A DNA stretch of 64,000 nt, taken from NCBI GenBank assembly GCA_963930775.1, contig OZ005698.1, forward strand, positions 4,966,501 to 5,030,500. Reading direction: 5' to 3'. Both the position numbers and the translations under genes were made by a program. Shown here piece after piece: positions 7,276-33,400 of the stretch (position 1 is its first letter; each line of letters starts with the position of its first letter). The DNA is from Cliona cf. orientalis. Lineage: Eukaryota; Porifera; Demospongiae; Clionaida; Clionaidae. Below the pieces are notes generated by a model that saw nothing but the letters and a program-made list of their open reading frames with translations, was not told where the DNA came from and searched no databases.

Positions 7276-9944
7276 TTAGTGATCTTCATAGGTATTGTTT
7301 ACTAGTGGGTGTTTTTGAGTTTCCTCGCTGGAACCAAGTTCTTGCTTTTTGTAACTTTCTGGAATAGTAGCGTACAACTGAGGAGCGGTGGCATCTGTCT
7401 TGCTGTCAACACTGTCCAATTGGTGACTGGCTAAATCATCCCCAAGGCCATTGGCACTCGGTTCGTTGGCTCCTGGTTGATTATTATTGCTCCTACTGTG
7501 TGTGCCTGAAAGTGGGAGTATTTTTAGATTGACATATGCATGACAATAGTAGTAATGATAACCATCTACCTGCTTTAGGCCGAGTGGGAAAGTCACTGAT
7601 TGTTTCGTAGGTTACTGGTACTACTTCTGCTCTTGTCCCGTACTGTGGATTTTGAGCAACACTGAGGCTGAGATGTCTATCTTTGAATTCACTACTTCCT
7701 CGGAAAGACCCTGAATCGGTGTAGATGGGATTGAGCACCATACGTTCAGAGTATTCTCTCTCGGGTGATCTGCAAAGAAAATCATAAGAGAATTGTTTTA
7801 TGTGTAGAATAACCTACTTACCTGGGTGAGTACTTCAACGATCTAGTTTGCTGTTTCAAAGCCACGAGACATCCTATTATGAATCCCACACACACAAACA
7901 TTACCAGAACACAAATACAAAGAATAGTCCAAAAACCAATCATGAATAAACTGTCACCAACTTGTGATGTTGTTGATGTTGTTGGAGGTAGTACTGGAAG
8001 ATCAAGAGGTAGCGTGTTTGTTGTGGTGCAATTCATACTTATGGTATCAATTGGTACATTGGTCATCATGTGTGCAGTGGCACAGCATTCATAGTTTGTG
8101 TCTGGTGCTAATCCATTGATCTCAATCTCAGTGATCTCTCTACTCACATCAGCAACTGTGGTTGACTGAATCTGCCCGTTACTGACCATTGTGCAAGACA
8201 CATCGTATGCTTGGACTTCCAGATTGTTGGAGGTATATCTGATCATTACTGAAGTAGGATTTCTAGTTATGACTGCGATAGTCCCTCGAGTATTGTTGTC
8301 CACTATTGCACCGTTAGTCACTGCATGCCATTGGTCACCACTGCACACCTCCACATTCCTAGAGCCCTGATCACTGAATCTTAGCTCCATGTCTCTGCAC
8401 ACTGAATAGGCAACCAGTTATTGTATCAAATGACTGTTATATCAACAGTCCCAGTGTCATGCCCAGACTTACCCTCCAAGTCTTTACTTTGAGTTGAGCT
8501 TCCCCTGGAATTTGATACCATGCATGTGTAATTTCCGGTTGATTCGGACGACTTATTGAGGATCCTTAGTCTGCTCTCATAAGTGGCAGTGACTGTGTTG
8601 ATAATTGCCATGGATTGTTCATAATACTGGTCATTATTTATCGTACTGTCGCTGTCCTTAAACCACATTACAGTTGTAACTGGTCCACCAGTTGATGTGC
8701 ATACGAGTGTGTTGGTTGTACTGTCATAGTTGAGTGAAATTATTCTCATAATTCCTATGGAAGAAATATTTAAGGTTTTATGTTTCGTGTGAGCAGTCCA
8801 TGTTGTATACTGTGCCTACCTTCTTCTTGTGGGTAAATGCCAACATAGAGGTGGTTAGTGATGTTATTGTTGTCGGCTAGCTCGCAGTGGTAGATTCCAG
8901 ATGCTATATCACTGATATTTACATAATTAAGGCCAATTGTGTGATTGTTCCAGCTTATGTACAATGCTTGAGAGCTGTTGATAGTTTGTGGACCTATCTT
9001 TGATCCATTTGGTGAATACCAGTTTCCATCATCTTCAGACTCAGCACTACAGCATGTTCTACTGTCTGTTGCACAGAATAGTGCTTCACTATCTTCACCA
9101 ATATCATTCAGTATGACTATGGAGTTGTTCATCAATCGTCGTGGACCATGTTCTAATGTCACACCTAATCGGTAAAGTGACAGTGATTCACCATTATTGA
9201 AACACAAAACAATGAAATCTATTGGCAAAACTCATAATAAGAATTATAGTTACTAATAGTAACTGTTAAAAGAAAGTAATACCAGCCTACTATAGTCATG
9301 CACCTCTTCATTGTTTTGATCTGCAAATATGTTTACTATTATTAATTATTATTTTTACCCTCCGTTTCTAATATAAATTTTACTTACCTTTGCGTTGGCA
9401 TCTTACTCCAGCATTCTCATTTGGACTACAATTGTGATCAGGTAGACACTGTAGTAAGTTCCCTTCAGATCCATTACATCTCAAGTCATCAAGTACAAAG
9501 GGGAGCTCACTATTAGCACTAAATGGATTTCGGCTATCCAATGCGATGACACCTAATTATAAGAAATCAATAACATTTTTGTATGTATGGGGTAGTGCCA
9601 AATATCGATGTTTAATACCTTCACTTGCCAGTCCAAGTTGGCTGCATACAACAGCTGAATCCGGTTCATCCCAGCTATCATCACACACTCTGCCCCACTG
9701 CTGACGTCTACACACCTCCACATTCCCCTCTCTGTAGTGGCTCCCTCCATGCAGCCTAACAGCTCCCTCCACACAGCTATCATCTATACAATCATTAATC
9801 ATCGTTATCAAATTTTAGACATGCATTGTATTTTTATAATAATATTATTTCTACCCTACCTTGTGCGTTAAGAAGTGATAAGCATCCAACTGACCACACG
9901 ACCACTACAACAGGTGGTAATCTTTGTAGTACGCTTGCCATCAT
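7276..9944 (-). CDS. SRCR-Ig-Ig-FN3 single-pass receptor with tyrosine-motif tail
   Basis: Eight exons on the minus strand: 9944-9860, 9783-9619, 9552-9388, 9218-8820, 8754-8473, 8401-7822, 7770-7570 and 7505-7276, about 700 residues. The start MMASVLQRLPPVVVVV opens a signal peptide. An SRCR domain spans exons 2-3 (VRLHGGS, GNVEVCRRQQWGRVCDDSW, VVCSQLGLAS, DLRCNGSE, LLQCL). Two Ig-like domains follow (one ends SGIYHCEL, the other has VMWFKDSD and STGNYTCMVSN). Next come a short SRCR-start-like stretch (ELRFSDQGSRNVEVCSGDQW), an FN3 domain and a TM helix (LCICVLVMFVCVGFIIGC). The tail of about 150 residues has NPIY, NPQY, VTYETI, LYATI and NTYEDH. NPxY motifs bind PTB domains or endocytic adaptors; VTYETI fits the ITIM pattern. 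The role is probably recognition with tyrosine-based signalling (inference). One exon edge may be off by a base. Confidence 0.85.
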
Positions 9945-22495: not shown

Positions 22496-25433
22496 ATGTC
22501 TCACGAATCTTTGGATCAGTTGATAGCAGACAAAGAAGAATCGGTAGATGATTCGTCGCAGGAACATTCTTGTAATAAACACGAATCTATTTGCGAAGAG
22601 CACGGTGAATTCCTACGATTTGATCAGGAGTTTGGAGATGCACCTCCCCCTGGACGAACATTGCTGTGTGGAGAAGAAAGAGTGTGGGCTCCATTGCTGT
22701 CAGTGATAGTGGCCTCCCTCCCTGCGCTTCTCTTTGGTTGCACCCTTGGCTTTCCCTCACCAGTATTACTGAATTTAATGGAACTGGATCGAGAAGAGAT
22801 CCGCTTTGGTACTGTCCTCTCTGATCTATTCAGTGTAAGTTGGTTGGTTCTAATGATAATTAATATAACACTATACACACCTTCCATACTTCAAGGAGAC
22901 AGCCTGAGAAATATCTCCCAAATTTAATGCCGAAAATTTCAGCTAATTTTTTTAGTAATACAGTATGCTGACAGCATATAATTTATTATTGTCATGTACT
23001 TTATTGATTGCAGGCAATGGGGCTGGTTGGTGGTATGATTGGTGGTCTACCAGCTGGCTGGGTTGCTGATAGGTGGGGGAGGAAGGTATCTGTTGCCATC
23101 AGTGGAATAGTGTTTGCTGCTGGTTATGCTGTCATGGCCTTCGCCAAAGTCCCCAACATTAATCCTCAGAGCTTCAAAGGACTATTAATGGTGGGAAGGC
23201 TCATAACTGGAGTGGCTAGTGGATGGACATTTGTCTCTACTCCAGTAAGTTATGCAGGATGAGTCTATCACATCACTGAACTCATGACCTCTCAGTCACA
23301 TGCTTCCCAACAATTCCATACATGTAGTTCTCTGAGGCCGGTCCCATAGTATCATAATAGATCTATTACATCCAATCCTCATGAGAGCAAATATCTGACT
23401 ATAGAGTGAATTATCGAATTTTGATCACATTTTAGGAAAATTGCTCTAATTTTTCCACTATTGGGATTTTTGTAAGCTTTAATTATTAATCACCTCAGTC
23501 AGGTAGAATTTCCAGGACATTTAAGCCAAAAAGCAAGTTCCATACGGGACATGGGACAAGGCCTCCAATTTTGGGACAGTTGGCACCTATGCACTTCAAA
23601 GTGAGGCACTACTATTATGATGAATCAGATATTTTTTTGTCGGACAAATTGAATACGAAACTTCAATCAATCAATCAACTGTGTCACTGGGAGGGTTGAC
23701 TACCTTGGCATCCCGCCACGATTGATCGCATCCTCGCCGATCCGTTCTGCGCATGTGCAGTTCCCATACTAATCCCGATGTAACCTTTTGCAGTGAGCAT
23801 GTCCACATGCACACAAATGTGGAACGAGGTGATAGCTCAAGGACCAACTGCGCATGTGTAAAATTTTGATATATAACCCATGCAGCTCCAGTGCGCAAAA
23901 CGCCCAATGCTACCCAGTGAATAGATAGCTGGGTGTGTCTCAAAAGTAAAATGTCCGGACAATTGATAGCCACGTCCGATGATTGGTAAATTACTCTAGC
24001 TATTATATCAACAGTAGGCTTTGATTAATAATAATTACTCTGAGAATAATAGGGTTGGGAATGTGTAGAACAATGGCAAAAATTTCTTTGTCATGGTGAC
24101 CTTTACACCTGCATTGTAACAAACCACTGTAGTAGCCTTACAAATAATAGGTCAGGAATGCCATTTGTTACCTTCTGCCACATGCAAGTTGAAGGAATAG
24201 TTGATAGAATAATGGGTATAACCAGAAGAATAAGAGTAATACGTCCATGTAAAGTTAGTGAGCTGCATCTTTCCTCTAGCTCGCATCCTAATGACACACT
24301 GCAGCTGTAGCCATAATGATAGTTTGTGATCATCCATTCAGGTATATTCTGCTGAGGTATCATCTCCAAAATTACGAGGAATACTCACTTCACTTGCAGA
24401 ACTTATATTGGCTGGTGGAATCTTGCTGGTGTATATACTCGGGTCTATTAAAGGATTTACCTACTTTGAAATTTCTCTTGTGCTGCTTGGCATTGCAATT
24501 TTGTTCATCGCAGTGGTACCCTGGATACCAGAAACTCCTAGGTGGCTAGTTTTCAAACGAAAGGATCGTTCCAAGGCTATGAAGGTACTCAAGTGTCTTA
24601 GGGGCTCAGACAGTGATCGTCTTTGTGATGAGTTGGAAGGAATTGAAGAAGCTGTTGAAACTTTAGGATCACTGTCCATCGTTCAGTTACTAAAGCAGTT
24701 CAAAAAGCAAAGTATACTGTTTCCATTCCTAATTGTTCTTGTGCTAATGATATTTCAAGAGCTGTGTGGTGGTGGTTCTACAGTGAACACTTATGCTGCT
24801 CCAGTCTTTAAAGAGGCTGGGGTGAAAAATCCACTTCTGATATCTTCATATGCCATTGGTGGGTCTCAATTGTTTGCAAGTATTATCTCAGTGTGTATTA
24901 TTGACTGTGTTGGACGTAAATTCTTACTGATTTTGAGTTGCTCTGGAATGTTGGTTGCCTCAGTAATGCTTGGAGTTCACTTCTACATTACTAGGCCATC
25001 ACTCTGCGAAGAAATGATGAACATAACATCTGAAGATTCAGAAATTATTGGTTGCAATAGTCAGTTTGCTCCACTGGCTATAGTCAGTCTCATCTTCTTC
25101 ATAATGTCATTTGCAGTTGGGGTTGGTCCAGTGCTGTGGGTACTGATGTCTGAATACCTTCCACTCCATGTGAGGGGATTTGCCAGTGGTGTAGTGATAG
25201 TGGCCAACTGGGCTGCGGCTGCAGCTGTGACTGGCCTCTACCTCAGCTATGCAAACCTTGTCAAGCCTTGGTTTGCCTGGTGGACATTCTCTATCATCAA
25301 TCTTGGTGGGTTAGTGTTTGTATTGCTGTTTGTAGTGGAGACCAAAGGAAAATCTCTGGAGAAGATTCAAGAAGCAATGGTGCAGCGATTTCACTTCTGT
25401 TATCAAAGAACAATGGCTGCAAATAGTAATTAG
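22496..25433 (+). CDS. SLC2A-like (GLUT) sugar transporter, copy 1, C-terminus cut by a transposon
   Basis: Three exons: 22496-22834, 23014-23244 and 24342-25433, giving 553 residues. It is a major-facilitator protein of the sugar-porter family: LLFGCTLGFPSPVLLNL in TM1, GWVADRWGRK after TM2, VGRLITGVASG, PETPRWL in the central loop, IDCVGRKFLL, GPVLWVLMSEYLP and VETKGKSLEKI at the end. The cytoplasmic N-terminus is long and acidic, with RTLL resembling the dileucine of intracellular class III GLUTs. In TM7 the usual QQLSGIN is replaced by QELCGGG, so substrate choice may differ from glucose. Compared with the copy at 42107-46970, the C-terminus stops early: the codon AAT is followed by TAG made by the left end of an inserted element at 25433. 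Intron 2 also has a copy-specific insertion (about 23400-24000). Confidence 0.93.
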
Positions 25434-26980: not shown

Positions 26981-29485
26981 ATGCTCAAGCATTTTCTGTT
27001 TATTTTATTGCTTGGGATCACTTCGACGGTTCGATCTGATCCGGTAATGTATGAACTCCCAGATGAAGAAAAGCAACAGTTGTTGGACGCACATAACGGC
27101 TATCGAAGCGACGCTGTACGTCGATTTGGTGCCTCCAACATGGGCGCTTTGGTAAATTTAAATGATTGTGATAGATCTATATCTTTCAACCGTGATATTT
27201 TGCAGGAGTGGAGCGAGACCTTAGCAACTATGGCAAGCTATCGTGCTATGCAATGCCACTTGGCTAACGAGGAAGATGGGTTAACCACCCAGGAGTACAC
27301 ATCTATAGGACAGAATTTGGCGAAAACGTTGATATTCAGTGGTACAAAAGTTGTGCATGGCTATATAAACTTCACTCAAATTGTAGGATACTGGTACTCG
27401 CAACATACCTACTACAGTGTTACCGACAATGCCTGCACAACCTCGTGTAATCAGTTTCTGCAGGTAATTGGTCTATTAGTAGCATGCGTGATGATAATAA
27501 ACAGTTATTCGTGGCATAGGTGGTATGGGCTGATACCTTTGCTGTTGGCTGTGGTACGAGCATATGTGATGATATTTACCCATATGCATTTTTCTTATGT
27601 TGCAACTATGGACCCACGTAAGGATTTATTAATTTTAATTAAGGGGACATTTCCAAACTGTTTACTTTTAGGTCTGCCTCCTTAGTGTCATGGCAAAAGT
27701 AGCAGATAATCAATCCTTAAAGATGGTGGTACTTGTAATTACTATTCAAAGTTCATGTTAAACATAGTGATACCGGTATGTCCCTGACCTACTTCTCCAT
27801 AGCGTCCTAATGTAAGGGACAAAGCAATTGAATTTGTCCATCCATTTTCGCACAAAATCGCCAGGCTTCAACATTTCTACAGGAGTGTCACAAATACTGG
27901 TTTTATTGGCCAAACCTATCGACTATACCTATTATAGGCCATGTGCTTTTTGCTCATGCGCGTGCATAAAATTTAATGGCCTAGCATAATAATTATAAAG
28001 GTTATAGCTAATTATGTCAGTAGACATCATGTCTGTGCAATTGATGCAGGATGCACTGCAGGCGCAGTGCACCAGGGCATATTATTTTTTATGCTCTAGA
28101 GAGTTTTACCGGTAGTTGAAAAAAGTTTGGAAGTGTCCCCAATAATAATGTATACTATACAGGCAAATTCTTGATATTATGTATGCCGGATCCTTCTTTT
28201 AGAGCAGACACATCATTGAGCACCCGGCCTTTTCAGCTTGGCGCTGCTTGCTCTGAGTGTCCTGTTGGTAAAACAAACTGTCAAAATAACCTCTGCAGTG
28301 GTAATAAATCTAATAGAGTATAATATATAATTTTTATTAGTTATATTCCTTAAAAATTAATTTCTGTTCTAGTTTTTGAAGATACTGCCATTGTTGGATC
28401 AGATCCCCATTTCAGCGTGCTTCTACCAAGTGGCTGCTTATTATGCTATACAATACAAGGACAGGCAAATTCATTCTTCAACCTTATCAATAACGAAAAT
28501 CTTGTGATGAATGCTCTTTTTGTACCCGATCCAAATCCTACATTCAAAATCAGAACTTGGCTTGGACAAATTGGTATAATAGTGAAGGGAGTTGAGAAGC
28601 ACATTCAATTAGTATTCACTGCATCAACTCGTGAAATTACATTGAACAAAAGGGTATCAATACCATTGAATTCAGTTGAGAAGTTGTCATTTAGGACCGG
28701 GAAACTTGTGATGATGGAATCCAAGCAGACACAACACCCCAGGATCTATATTGATTACGATGATGCTGGGCTTCACCTGTCTGTTGTATTCATCAATGAC
28801 CACCGTTTGGATCTAATCTGGCACAGCACAAACAAGATTACTGGCAAAAGTAGAGGATTAATTGGTATGAATTTAGAAGCCAATACATCAATTAACTCCT
28901 TGCAAAGACAATAGAACTGCAGAGTAAAACCATGATCAAATGCCTACTAGTATAGTGGAACCCCCCCCTCAATAAGTATACCCCTGAATTGAGGACACCT
29001 ATAATCATTACTGCCAGTTGTTCAAGCTTCACAAGGAAGTACACAAAACTACCCATGAATTGAGGTATCATAACCTCCTTTATAATAGGGACACTTAACG
29101 CTACCCCTAGGGTATCTGGAATAGAGGGGTTCCACTGTAGCTATGCAAGCTTACCTAGTTGATATAGTGCTCACCATGACACGGCATCTTATTGGATGCT
29201 GAATTGAACCCTCTTCTTCCCTTTACTCTTTCAGGACAATTTCTTGATAGTGATGTCAAGATCGATGAGAATGAAAAGTTGCTCATGATTCCTGGTCGGG
29301 ATCCAATACCAGTCATGAAAAGGCAGGCTTGGAAATTTGTTGAAAAAAATATGGAATCTCATGAGAGAGATGCAAATGCCCACATTAAATTTTGTTGGAC
29401 CACTGCTTATCCTAGCAACCAGGGACATGGTATTATCAAGGGTACTTTCCTTGATTATAAAGTACAGCACATTCTGGCAGTCTAA
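26981..29485 (+). CDS. Secreted CAP domain fused to an ITIH heavy-chain C-terminal domain
   Basis: Five exons join in phase: 26981-27463, 27520-27617, 28203-28300, 28373-28864 and 29235-29485, giving 473 residues. The start opens a signal peptide (MLKHFLFILLLGITSTVRS). A CAP (SCP/TAPS) domain follows: LLDAHNGYRSDAV, WSETLATMASYRAMQC, YTSIGQNLAKT, VVWADTFAVGCGTSIC and FFLCCNYGPT. A small cysteine-rich link comes next (GAACSECPVGKTNCQNNLC). The last 250 residues match ITIH_C, the C-terminal domain of inter-alpha-trypsin-inhibitor heavy chains: GSDPHFSVLLPSGCLLCYTI, RTWLGQIGIIV, SRGLIGQFLDSDVKI and GHGIIKGTFLDYKVQHIL. Normal heavy chains are VIT-vWA-ITIH_C; I know of no CAP-ITIH_C protein. Exon 2 is short and uses a TAG acceptor, but both its neighbours continue the reading frame exactly. 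Likely extracellular-matrix or defence protein (inference). Confidence 0.87.
27830..27990 (+). repeat. Element A, partial copy 3 (CAP-ITIH_C intron 2)
   Basis: GTCACAAATACTGGTTTTAT, CCTATCGAC and GTGCTTTTTGCTCATGCGC match the middle of element A at 17900-18000. The ends are missing or eroded. Confidence 0.6.
28952..29140. mobile_element. ~190-bp inverted-repeat element in the last CAP-ITIH_C intron
   Basis: ATAGTGGAACCCCCCCCTCA pairs with GAGGGGTTCCACTGTA. TA dinucleotides flank both ends, as in Tc1/mariner-type MITEs. A related single end is near 61045. Confidence 0.65.
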
Positions 29486-30378: not shown

Positions 30379-30431
30379 GCGCATGCGCATGGGATAATAG
30401 GCGTTGAAGTGTGGTACATGGTAAAGGTCGT
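30379..30431. promoter_or_regulatory. ACOX3 upstream region: NRF1-like palindrome plus GGTAAAGGTCGT
   Basis: TGCGCATGCGCA at 30379-30390 is a perfect match to the palindromic NRF1 consensus. It sits between TATCCCTTGCG and GGGATAATA, the hairpin end typical of element A. GGTAAAGGTCGT follows at 30420-30431, 20 bp before the start codon at 30452. Either an old element end now serves as a promoter, or the motifs coincide by chance. Confidence 0.5.
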
Positions 30432-30451
30432 ATTTGCTTCGTGGAGCCGAG

Positions 30452-33400
30452 ATGAGCCTTGAAGAATACAGGAGAAAGGCTTCATTTGATATCGAGGCTT
30501 TGCGACAGATCATCGATGAAGAAGACGGCGTAGAACTAAAGCAGTATATCTGGGAGCTGTTGGATAAGGATCCCATATTTCATCAACCTAGGGACAACCT
30601 CACAATTGAGCAAGAGCAAGAGTTGACTTTCAGGAGAGTAAAACGCCTGGCAGAATATGACATCGAATATTTTGTTACCCCAGCAAAGCAAGCTGCTTTT
30701 CTGAGTGCACTCTCTGCTTTTGACTGCAGCCTACCAGTACTGCATGGAGTCAACAACATTGTGAGTATAATGCAGCTGGGGCTGGGAAGGGGTGGCTACA
30801 TGTATTATGGCTAAGTGTATTCTGACTGCACATCAATGTCTGGACTTGTTTTCCCCGGATATTCAAGCCTAGTCTCATGCGCCAGCCCCTCCTACGCAAA
30901 AAGGAGAAAGGGTCTGATCAAAAGGGTCACACTAAGGGGGCTTGTCCAAAGTCCTTGTAAAAAAATTAATGTCATTATGATGTTAGGGGGGAGGGGTCCT
31001 GATCCTGCTTTGTCAGCAGACTTTAGTGTGATTATGCATTCTTGTGATTGAACAAGTCTAGAATGCCTCCAGCATGCGGTGTCACTACGTAGCTAAAAGT
31101 GTAGATGTAGCTACAGGCAAGCAAGAAACTGTCAAAGAAGCACAGGTATGCAATGAATTCACGAAGACATAGCCAGCGCTGTAGAATACAAGTGAATACC
31201 AAATATGTAGGCTAAATTGAGCAGAATCGGAGTTTCAGTGTTGAATCTATGCTGAAATGCTATGATGTTAAGGGGGGGGGGGTAAAATGTTCATGTCATA
31301 ATGACGTTAAAAGGACTTTGGACAAGCTCCCTAATACGTCCGGCTGGAATGCAATAATTGGCAATTCTGATGTGCGTAAAATAGAAACTAACCGCCACTT
31401 CTGTACCGTGTGCAAAGGCTGAGCACTTGAGCGTATGCACATAAGTATGGACCATGCATAATTACTTTCAACTAATGTCATGTGATCCTGGTTCTGCAAC
31501 CTGATTGGGCTGCAATATACGTACCTCAAGGACAAGGAAGTGCAACCCTTTTGACCAGACCCTTTCTTGTGCGTGCATAAAGGGGGCTGGGCACGAGATT
31601 AATTCAAGTCATATCCAGTTGACTTCCTGTACCACACAATCATCATAGCCCCACCCTCCCCCTCCCCCCAAAATCAGTTTTAGTACATTAAATGATTCGT
31701 AAAGGGTGCAGGAGCCACATCATGTTTACAATATTTCTCCCTCTGGTGCGCACCTCATACAAGATTTCATCTTTCCTTGTGCTTCTACCATAATAATATT
31801 ATTATATCAGCATTATAATAGCACTCATTGAACTTTTAACTGCAAAATACTGATTTCAAGTGTAGGAGCAACCGTTTTATTAAACCGCTTGATTCCTGGA
31901 GCTTTGCATACCTCTACTGCAAAGTTATTAACAATTGTAACCTCATCCACCATCTCTACGTGATCCTTTTAAAGTCTAGCATACTATGCTCAAGGAGCAC
32001 TTGTGCTTGTTACATATTGCACACTCGAGTACATGCGTAACACATGTATGCTTCAAAGCAGAAGAGGTTGGACATGCGTCATCAAACGTCACCAGTAGTA
32101 TGTCACATGCACCAACATAAAATGTATATAAACATGAGTCACGCATTCCTGTATATTGTGAAGGATGCTATTGGGAAGAGCCTTGACAAACCAACCTTTC
32201 AATCCTGTTCAACCCCAGCCAAACCAGTGAGTACCAAGGCTTTTTATTGCTCATGGTGAATCAAAAGTCAGCACTTTAGGCTGATTAAGGCTTCGTTTGT
32301 CGTTCTCCCACTCTGGATTTGAAATCAGGTTTAGAAAGTCATTTTCGACTAAATTTGCAATTGAAACAAATGCACTACTACCGTATAGCTGGAAATTTTG
32401 GTAGGTTTTTAATTTGGTGAATTTGGTATAGATAGCGAGGGTTTCATCTAGCAACAAAATTTTGGAGTGAAAGTGCAATGAATGAGTGGGTGTATTTAGC
32501 ACGCCAAGTTCCTTGGGACCTATTTTAGGAGAATTTCTTTAATTCCTCCAGATCGTTTTGGATAATTATTTTTGATCAAAAATAAATGCTAGTAGTTTGA
32601 TTTCGTGACGTTTTGTGATAATTATTATGATGATTAAAATAATATTCTTAAGGGGGAAGCTTCCCCCCTGCCCCCCCCCCCCCCCCCCCCACCCCCACTG
32701 GATGAAATCCTGATAGCCAAATTAAAAACTTGCCAATTGCGCACACGTGCCTATGGCGGTAAGGATTCCAGTATCAATGGAGAGCCATTTCACCGAATTT
32801 AATGCTTGCCAAGATTACCCGCTATACAGTATGTTGCTAATTTATGTAGGAATGCTAATGATACGTGGCCAACCTCCTCTGGCTTCAAAGAAATGGTGAT
32901 TCTCTCAGTTCACTTTCTTTGGCGAGCTTGTACTCTGGGGAGATTCCCTATTCAGTCTAGTACATGCCAGTTTGAGGTCATATCTGGGTCAACCAGCTCA
33001 TGCCACGTACGCAGTTTATTGAGGTCGATAATGGGCAGTGTATGCTAGTGGCCATGGTATGATAATTTTCATGAGGGATGAGGGATGTAGCAAGTTTTTC
33101 ATTGTATCCTTAGTACAGTCCAACCTCAACTATTTGAACCCTTGATTATCTGAAGTCGAGATGCAAAGAAAATGCAGGATCAAATTAAAGTACACATTAT
33201 GACCATGTGACGGGCTTGCGCATGCACAGTAAACCTTCATCACATAGTTGCCATGTGAGAACCAGCTGCTGCGTTGCTATCAAATCTAGTTCTAACACTC
33301 AAAGACCCAAGGTACATCCAAGAGTTCTGTAAATCAAGGATGAGATTAAAATCATCAAAATGCTCGCATAATAATATAATACATTTTTGCATGCATGATT

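What the first reader, a model, noticed from the sequence alone, without database searches (positions are those of the whole stretch)
26981..29485. CAP domain fused to an ITIH heavy-chain C-terminal domain
Seen: five exons in perfect phase link a signal peptide and CAP domain (SIGQNLAKT, VVWADTFAVGCG) to an ITIH_C domain (DPHFSVLL, RGLIGQFLDSD, KGTFLDYKVQHIL). Known: ITIH heavy chains are VIT-vWA-ITIH_C, and CAP proteins are stand-alone or carry small cysteine-rich tails. Inference: a new secreted architecture in which CAP replaces the VIT-vWA body.
Basis: partly seen in the sequence, partly recalled or inferred. Interest (0 to 1): 0.9.

Follow-up and report, generated by a model that had tools for sequence, protein, structure and literature searches.

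The report
CAP protein with self-cutting heavy-chain tail
This animal gene joins a secreted CAP domain to the tail piece that vertebrate inter-alpha-inhibitor heavy chains use when they are tied covalently to sugar polymers, and the same genome carries that tail behind several other secreted domains, so the tail looks like a portable attachment tag.

Summary
The fusion is real at the level of sequence. Five exons (26981-29485, + strand) splice in frame into a 473-aa protein: signal peptide, CAP, short Cys-rich tail, GSDPHF motif, and a 236-residue C-terminal domain homologous to the ITIH heavy-chain pro-domain. Two genes are unlikely: the junction intron is 72 bp and exon 4 has no Met before DPHF.

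It is not a one-off. The same unnamed 217-Mb genome holds 27 two-exon copies of this domain, three with a possibly broken frame. Nine sit behind CAP, twelve behind NIDO, five behind Calx-beta, one behind Ig domains. DPHF is kept in 26 of 27. No VIT match found in this genome lies near a copy.

Most likely mechanism (inferred): Asp-Pro self-cleavage during secretion, leaving a CAP body ending in Asp, perhaps ester-linked to a matrix polysaccharide. Cleavage is moderately likely; ester transfer is open. No RNA, protein or structure evidence was available.

The parts
26981..27463 (+). exon 1: start codon, signal-peptide-like N terminus (residues 1-19, by eye) and most of the CAP domain; ends in phase 0
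27520..27617 (+). exon 2: end of the CAP domain (VVWADTFAVGCG...CCNYGPT), ends in phase 2
28203..28300 (+). exon 3: short Cys-rich CAP tail (FQLGAACSECPVGKTNCQNNLCS), ends in phase 1; alternative acceptors in frame, e.g. 28221
   Evidence: corresponding exon and phase in L029
28373..28864 (+). exon 4: GSDPHF motif and first two thirds of the ITIH-type pro-domain; no Met before DPHF in this open frame
28402..28413 (+). codons of D237-P238-H239-F240: predicted Asp-Pro cleavage and esterification site
   Evidence: sequence; DPHF in 26 of 27 genomic copies (plus window) and 63 of 65 database rows that reach it
29235..29485 (+). exon 5: rest of the pro-domain (GQFLDSD...CWTT...GIIKGTFLDYKV) and stop codon

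Best explanation
The gene encodes a secreted precursor: CAP body, Cys-rich tail, and an ITIH-type C-terminal pro-domain that begins at a DPHF motif. Shown: gene structure in DNA, domain homologies, length and motif of the pro-domain, and recurrence of the module behind four kinds of body. Inferred: in the acidic late secretory pathway the pro-domain promotes cleavage of the Asp237-Pro238 bond, so that the CAP body ends in Asp237. Inferred with less confidence: as in ITIH heavy chains, the activated Asp is passed to a hydroxyl of a polysaccharide, giving a CAP domain ester-linked to matrix sugar. The pro-domain is thus a portable processing and attachment tag.
Against: No transcript, protein or biochemical evidence. 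ITI_HC_C never reaches Pfam's cut-off: best 24.3 bits against 27 (L044); several copies give no hit, and only 1 of 51 database relatives gives a weak one (0.071). The residue before Asp is Ser here (GSDPHF), not Gly, whereas the published self-cleaving motif is GDPH. L029 has NPHF, so at least one CAP copy has no Asp there. Three of 27 copies, one of them a CAP copy, seem to have a broken pro-domain frame. The acceptor sugar in this animal is unknown. No structure could be predicted (tool off).
Confidence: 0.55

Rival explanations
1. The domain folds and cuts itself at Asp-Pro but the halves stay together, as in some VWD domains; it is a structural module, and nothing is esterified to a sugar.
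For: GDPH cleavage is reported to stabilise VWD domains (PMC10880436, title and start of abstract, passages), and SUSD2 needs GDPH plus inter-fragment disulfides (PMC6696261, title in the listing). NIDO followed by a VWD domain recalls SUSD2 and MUC4 (recalled).
Against: No VWD Pfam hit at E<=1 in the window protein. Only three Cys in the pro-domain (248, 251, 444). The match to recalled ITIH sequences runs to the C-terminal DY.V end.
Confidence: 0.25
2. The domain is an uncut C-terminal adhesion or ligand-binding domain that merely descends from the ITIH pro-domain lineage; DPHF is kept for folding.
For: L029 keeps the domain with NPHF; the divergent copy L051 has SPRF; two of 65 database rows lack DPHF.
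Against: DPHF in 26 of 27 genomic copies (plus window) and 63 of 65 database rows; the same motif starts the ITIH pro-domain (recalled sequences).
Confidence: 0.15
3. Two separate genes (a CAP gene and a pro-domain gene) were joined wrongly by the reader.
For: Without splicing of intron 3 the CAP frame ends at a stop at 28321-28323, so a CAP-only isoform is possible. No RNA data.
Against: 72-bp intron with compatible phases; no Met before DPHF in exon 4; eight further CAP-pro-domain neighbours in the same order; identical four-intron phase pattern in L029; P0053 carries what looks like a CAP end, Cys-rich tail and DPHF domain in one open frame on another contig, though its CAP Pfam score is weak (E=0.17); uninterrupted Calx-beta-DPHF frame in L042.
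Confidence: 0.05

Closest known systems
ITIH heavy chains (inter-alpha-trypsin inhibitor family), C-terminal pro-domain PF06668
   Same: DPHF start, 236 versus 239/244 residues, conserved GLIGQF, CW and (I/L)I.G...DY.V blocks, end-to-end alignment with ITIH2 and ITIH3 (human sequences recalled)
   Different: No VIT and no vWA hit; the body is CAP. Pfam score under the curated cut-off.
CAP superfamily (CRISP, GLIPR1, antigen 5, PR-1)
   Same: CAP domain and short Cys-rich tail; best PDB match GLIPR1 3q2r, E=5.4e-14
   Different: A 236-residue pro-domain follows the tail; the window copy lacks the usual HYTQ His and GEN Glu (motifs recalled; NQFLQ and GQN here).
Self-cleaving GDPH VWD domains (FCGBP, MUC2, MUC5AC, SUSD2)
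   Same: DPH motif at the domain start; the ITIH3/5/6 domain with GDPH is predicted to share VWD topology (PMC10880436, passages)
   Different: No VWD hit, few Cys, terminal position, ITIH-type C-terminal half.
Sponge aggregation-factor-like Calx-beta proteins
   Same: Five copies of the module sit behind Calx-beta repeats, in clusters; aggregation factors contain Calx-beta (PMC10815962, passage)
   Different: The window gene has no Calx-beta. Whether the published aggregation-factor domains include this module could not be read (PMC5400394 not held).

Membership tests
ITIH heavy chain | VIT domain N-terminal | tested here: not met
   Pfam at E<=1 shows only CAP and ITI_HC_C
ITIH heavy chain | vWA domain | tested here: not met
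ITIH heavy chain | C-terminal pro-domain homologous to PF06668 | tested here: met
   E=1.1e-4 but under the curated cut-off; profile test with recalled human sequences
ITIH heavy chain | DPHF at the pro-domain border | tested here: met
   residues 237-240; 26 of 27 copies (plus window)
ITIH heavy chain | Asp ester-linked to chondroitin sulfate or hyaluronan | not testable with these tools
   needs protein chemistry
CAP superfamily | CAP domain PF00188 above curated cut-off | tested here: met
   45.5 bits against 21.1
CAP superfamily | zinc-site/tetrad residues (HYTQ His, GEN Glu), common but not universal, so not counted as defining | tested here: not met
   NQFLQ and GQN in the window copy; other CAP copies vary (alignment; motifs recalled)
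VWD (GDPH) domain | VWD profile match | tested here: not met
   no VWD at E<=1
VWD (GDPH) domain | VWD-like fold | not testable with these tools
   structure prediction switched off

The most novel reading that the evidence does not exclude
The ITIH pro-domain is an ancient portable 'esterification tag'. In this animal it self-cleaves at Asp-Pro and fixes many secreted bodies (CAP, NIDO, Calx-beta, Ig) covalently to matrix polysaccharide through their new C-terminal Asp, without any VIT-vWA heavy chain. Vertebrate inter-alpha-inhibitor would be one late use of it.
Probability: 0.3. Interest if true: 0.9.

Novelty: new variant of a known kind. Interest (0 to 1): 0.74.

Why it matters
Covalent protein-polysaccharide ester linkage is known, as far as I recall, only for ITIH heavy chains. 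If the pro-domain alone carries that chemistry, this family shows it is modular, predates or is independent of the VIT-vWA body, and can be tested on many bodies. It would also give a new way to fix CAP and adhesion proteins into a matrix, and a natural set of 27 paralogous copies, one with the Asp changed to Asn, for testing which residues are needed.

Tried and rejected
Pfam ITI_HC_C as a whole-genome query found nothing anywhere, the 14 control genomes included, so it was uninformative; protein queries were used instead. Searching PDB with the domain profile gave one unrelated hit at E=0.043 (ADP-ribose pyrophosphatase). Two genes instead of one: rejected, see rivals. A divergent VWD domain: not supported by Pfam. 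VIT genes carrying the module: 11 VIT matches (C4, C5, C15, C17), none near any of the 27 copies found at single-sequence sensitivity; more divergent copies could be missed. Ten paper searches: among the titles and abstract starts listed (at most 20 per search) I saw none about CAP or NIDO joined to this domain; 'Wreath domain' has 0 occurrences in the 20 papers listed of 68. Spliced models of L033, L034, L037 and L019 have odd junction or last-intron phases and may be slightly wrong. The pro-domain exon is one open frame in 24 of 27 copies (window included; L038 is counted because the script picked a duplicate motif there); L028 and L034 lose the frame near its end and L041 has a stop, so these may be pseudogenes or assembly errors. 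Calx-beta and Ig genes other than the L042 junction were put together from open frames by eye, not splice-verified; for L043 and L046 only the Calx-beta pieces went to Pfam.

Full report
OBSERVATION. Pfam places CAP at residues 35-191 (E=1.6e-11, above cut-off) and ITI_HC_C at 278-445 (E=1.1e-4, 22.3 bits against a cut-off of 27). NCBIfam gives nothing. The best PDB relative is GLIPR1 (E=5.4e-14, CAP part). The Cys-rich tail and the DPHF exon are separated by a 72-bp intron, and the exon-4 frame has no Met before DPHF, so an independent second gene would need an unseen upstream exon.

SURROUNDINGS. The 5' neighbour is a sugar-transporter gene (24330-25433, PF00083 E=2.8e-56); the 3' neighbour looks like the start of an acyl-CoA oxidase gene (30425-30814, PF14749 E=0.0017, 19.3 bits, under the cut-off of 25). 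Neither is related.

RELATIVES IN THE SAME GENOME. The window lies in a 216.8-Mb assembly of 149 contigs. Searching it with the window protein gave 84 matches at E<=1, among them 27 two-exon copies of the pro-domain, the window gene included; a Calx-type query returned the same 27 plus fragments. I examined all 26 other copies: 20 with stretches of 4-10 kb and 6 with the 3.5-kb loci. Result: 9 of 27 CAP (window, L029, L031-L037; Pfam CAP above cut-off in 9 of 9); 12 of 27 NIDO (spliced models; Pfam run on 3 of 12, E 2.3e-49 to 1.3e-58); 5 of 27 Calx-beta (Pfam Calx-beta above cut-off in 5 of 5); 1 of 27 Ig (L045, Ig_3 E=1e-14). In L042 a Calx-beta repeat and the DPHF domain share one uninterrupted frame. 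The DPHF exon is one open frame in 24 of 27; L028, L034 and L041 are disrupted (L038).

CONSERVED FEATURES. DPHF occurs in 26 of 27 copies; L029 has NPHF. The intron inside the pro-domain is phase 1 in 25 of 26 models and in the window. The intron before the DPHF exon is phase 1 in 7 of 9 CAP genes (window) and in 11 of 12 NIDO genes, as expected of a shuffled module. L029 repeats all four window introns with the same phases. dN/dS is 0.09-0.32 in the 12 of 14 comparisons where it could be computed, some with saturated dS (whole CAP models, pro-domain only for the others), and 0.11-0.40 for body and pro-domain separately in 5 comparisons among six CAP genes, body dS above 2 in two.

RELATIVES ELSEWHERE. 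The window protein against 5.8 billion proteins found P0001 (starts at the DPHF exon and seems to read through an intron) and a starfish CAP-hemopexin protein. A search limited to the pro-domain found only P0001 (57%). A 14-row alignment found 103 further rows (P0003-P0105), mostly short exon-level predictions, with the candidates capped at 7995; 63 of the 65 that reach the motif have DPHF. Three of the rows carry NIDO above cut-off (P0041, P0048, P0105). P0053 shows what looks like the end of a CAP domain, a Cys-rich tail and the DPHF domain in one frame, but its CAP Pfam score is weak (E=0.17). No listed row has a precomputed Pfam pair CAP + ITI_HC_C, and none has VIT or vWA. These searches work through shared 5-residue words and length limits, so absence is weak evidence.

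TREE. On a tree of 31 pro-domains, the 12 NIDO copies form one clade (100/99) inside a grade of CAP copies (enclosing forks 93/94 and 99/99), and the Ig copy sits inside the Calx-beta copies (100/97); five labels, one of them 'unknown', need 6 changes against a shuffled mean of 15.9. The CAP label includes P0053. L029 is a long branch and its place is unsure. The body seems to have been exchanged while the pro-domain stayed; direction depends on the root.

CANONICAL HEAVY CHAINS. VIT gives 11 matches on C4, C5, C15 and C17, none near a pro-domain copy. CAP exons at E<=1e-3 occur at 12 places, 4 of them inside pro-domain genes (C7 three, C6 one); others, such as those on C3 and C11, have no pro-domain copy listed near them. 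This family search works exon by exon and missed the window's own CAP, so it undercounts.

MECHANISM. In inter-alpha-inhibitor, HC1 and HC2 are ester-bonded by their C termini to GalNAc of chondroitin sulfate, and their 239- and 244-residue pro-domains are removed in the process (PMC7170535, passages). That this C terminus is the Asp of DPHF is recalled. ITIH3/5/6 carry GDPH in a predicted VWD-like fold and were named as candidates for self-cleavage (PMC10880436, passages). That low pH triggers heavy-chain self-cleavage is recalled (work of Fries and colleagues), not read here. The window protein has the same motif position and a 236-residue pro-domain. Steps shown: architecture, homology, motif conservation. 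Steps inferred: cleavage, then ester transfer to an unknown sugar. The CAP body would thereby be fixed to matrix or released with a defined C terminus.

VERDICT. Real, recurrent, conserved fusion at the level of the genome; not an ITIH heavy chain, but built with its processing module. New variant of a known kind.

Noticed in passing
L018, L019, L021, L023, L028, L038-L041, L048-L050 (contigs C2, C15, C17): Twelve NIDO copies end in the same DPHF pro-domain; they form one recent clade with several neighbouring copies, and L028 and L041 look disrupted.
   Followed up: partly
L042-L044 (C19:1.137-1.163 Mb) and L046-L047 (C1:6.40-6.41 Mb): Clusters of Calx-beta proteins ending in the DPHF pro-domain, resembling aggregation-factor genes; identity with published aggregation-factor domains not checked (paper not held).
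   Followed up: partly
L045 (C1:6.390 Mb): Ig-domain protein with the same pro-domain, near the Calx-beta cluster and inside its tree clade.
   Followed up: partly
L029 (C10:5154563-5156075): CAP copy with NPHF instead of DPHF: a natural candidate for a non-cleaving form.
   Followed up: partly
L051:821-1540 (C12:94.8-95.5 kb): Divergent relative with SPRF in place of DPHF but LLCFAIDG and HGLLGNW blocks; no Pfam hit at E<=0.01.
   Followed up: partly
L038, about 0.13 kb before the DPHF exon: A second, truncated start of the DPHF exon (GSDPHFAILRLI) just upstream of the full one, like a small local duplication.
   Followed up: no
G000 C16:1944246-1944350: A lone second copy of the window's Cys-rich tail exon (77% identity, residues 192-226); its surroundings were not fetched.
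   Followed up: no
window 27083-27609: The window CAP domain has NQFLQ where HYTQ is usual and GQN where GEN is usual, so its metal/tetrad site looks degraded (motifs recalled).
   Followed up: partly
window 28301-28323: Retention of intron 3 would end the CAP frame after SGNKSNRV, allowing a stand-alone CAP isoform.
   Followed up: no
P0002 (Asterias rubens): CAP joined to hemopexin (precomputed PF00188 and PF00045): another CAP fusion with a matrix-type domain.
   Followed up: no
P0049: A Calx-clade pro-domain preceded by a short Cys-rich stretch of unknown kind on a 1.7-Mb contig; no Pfam hit at E<=0.01.
   Followed up: no
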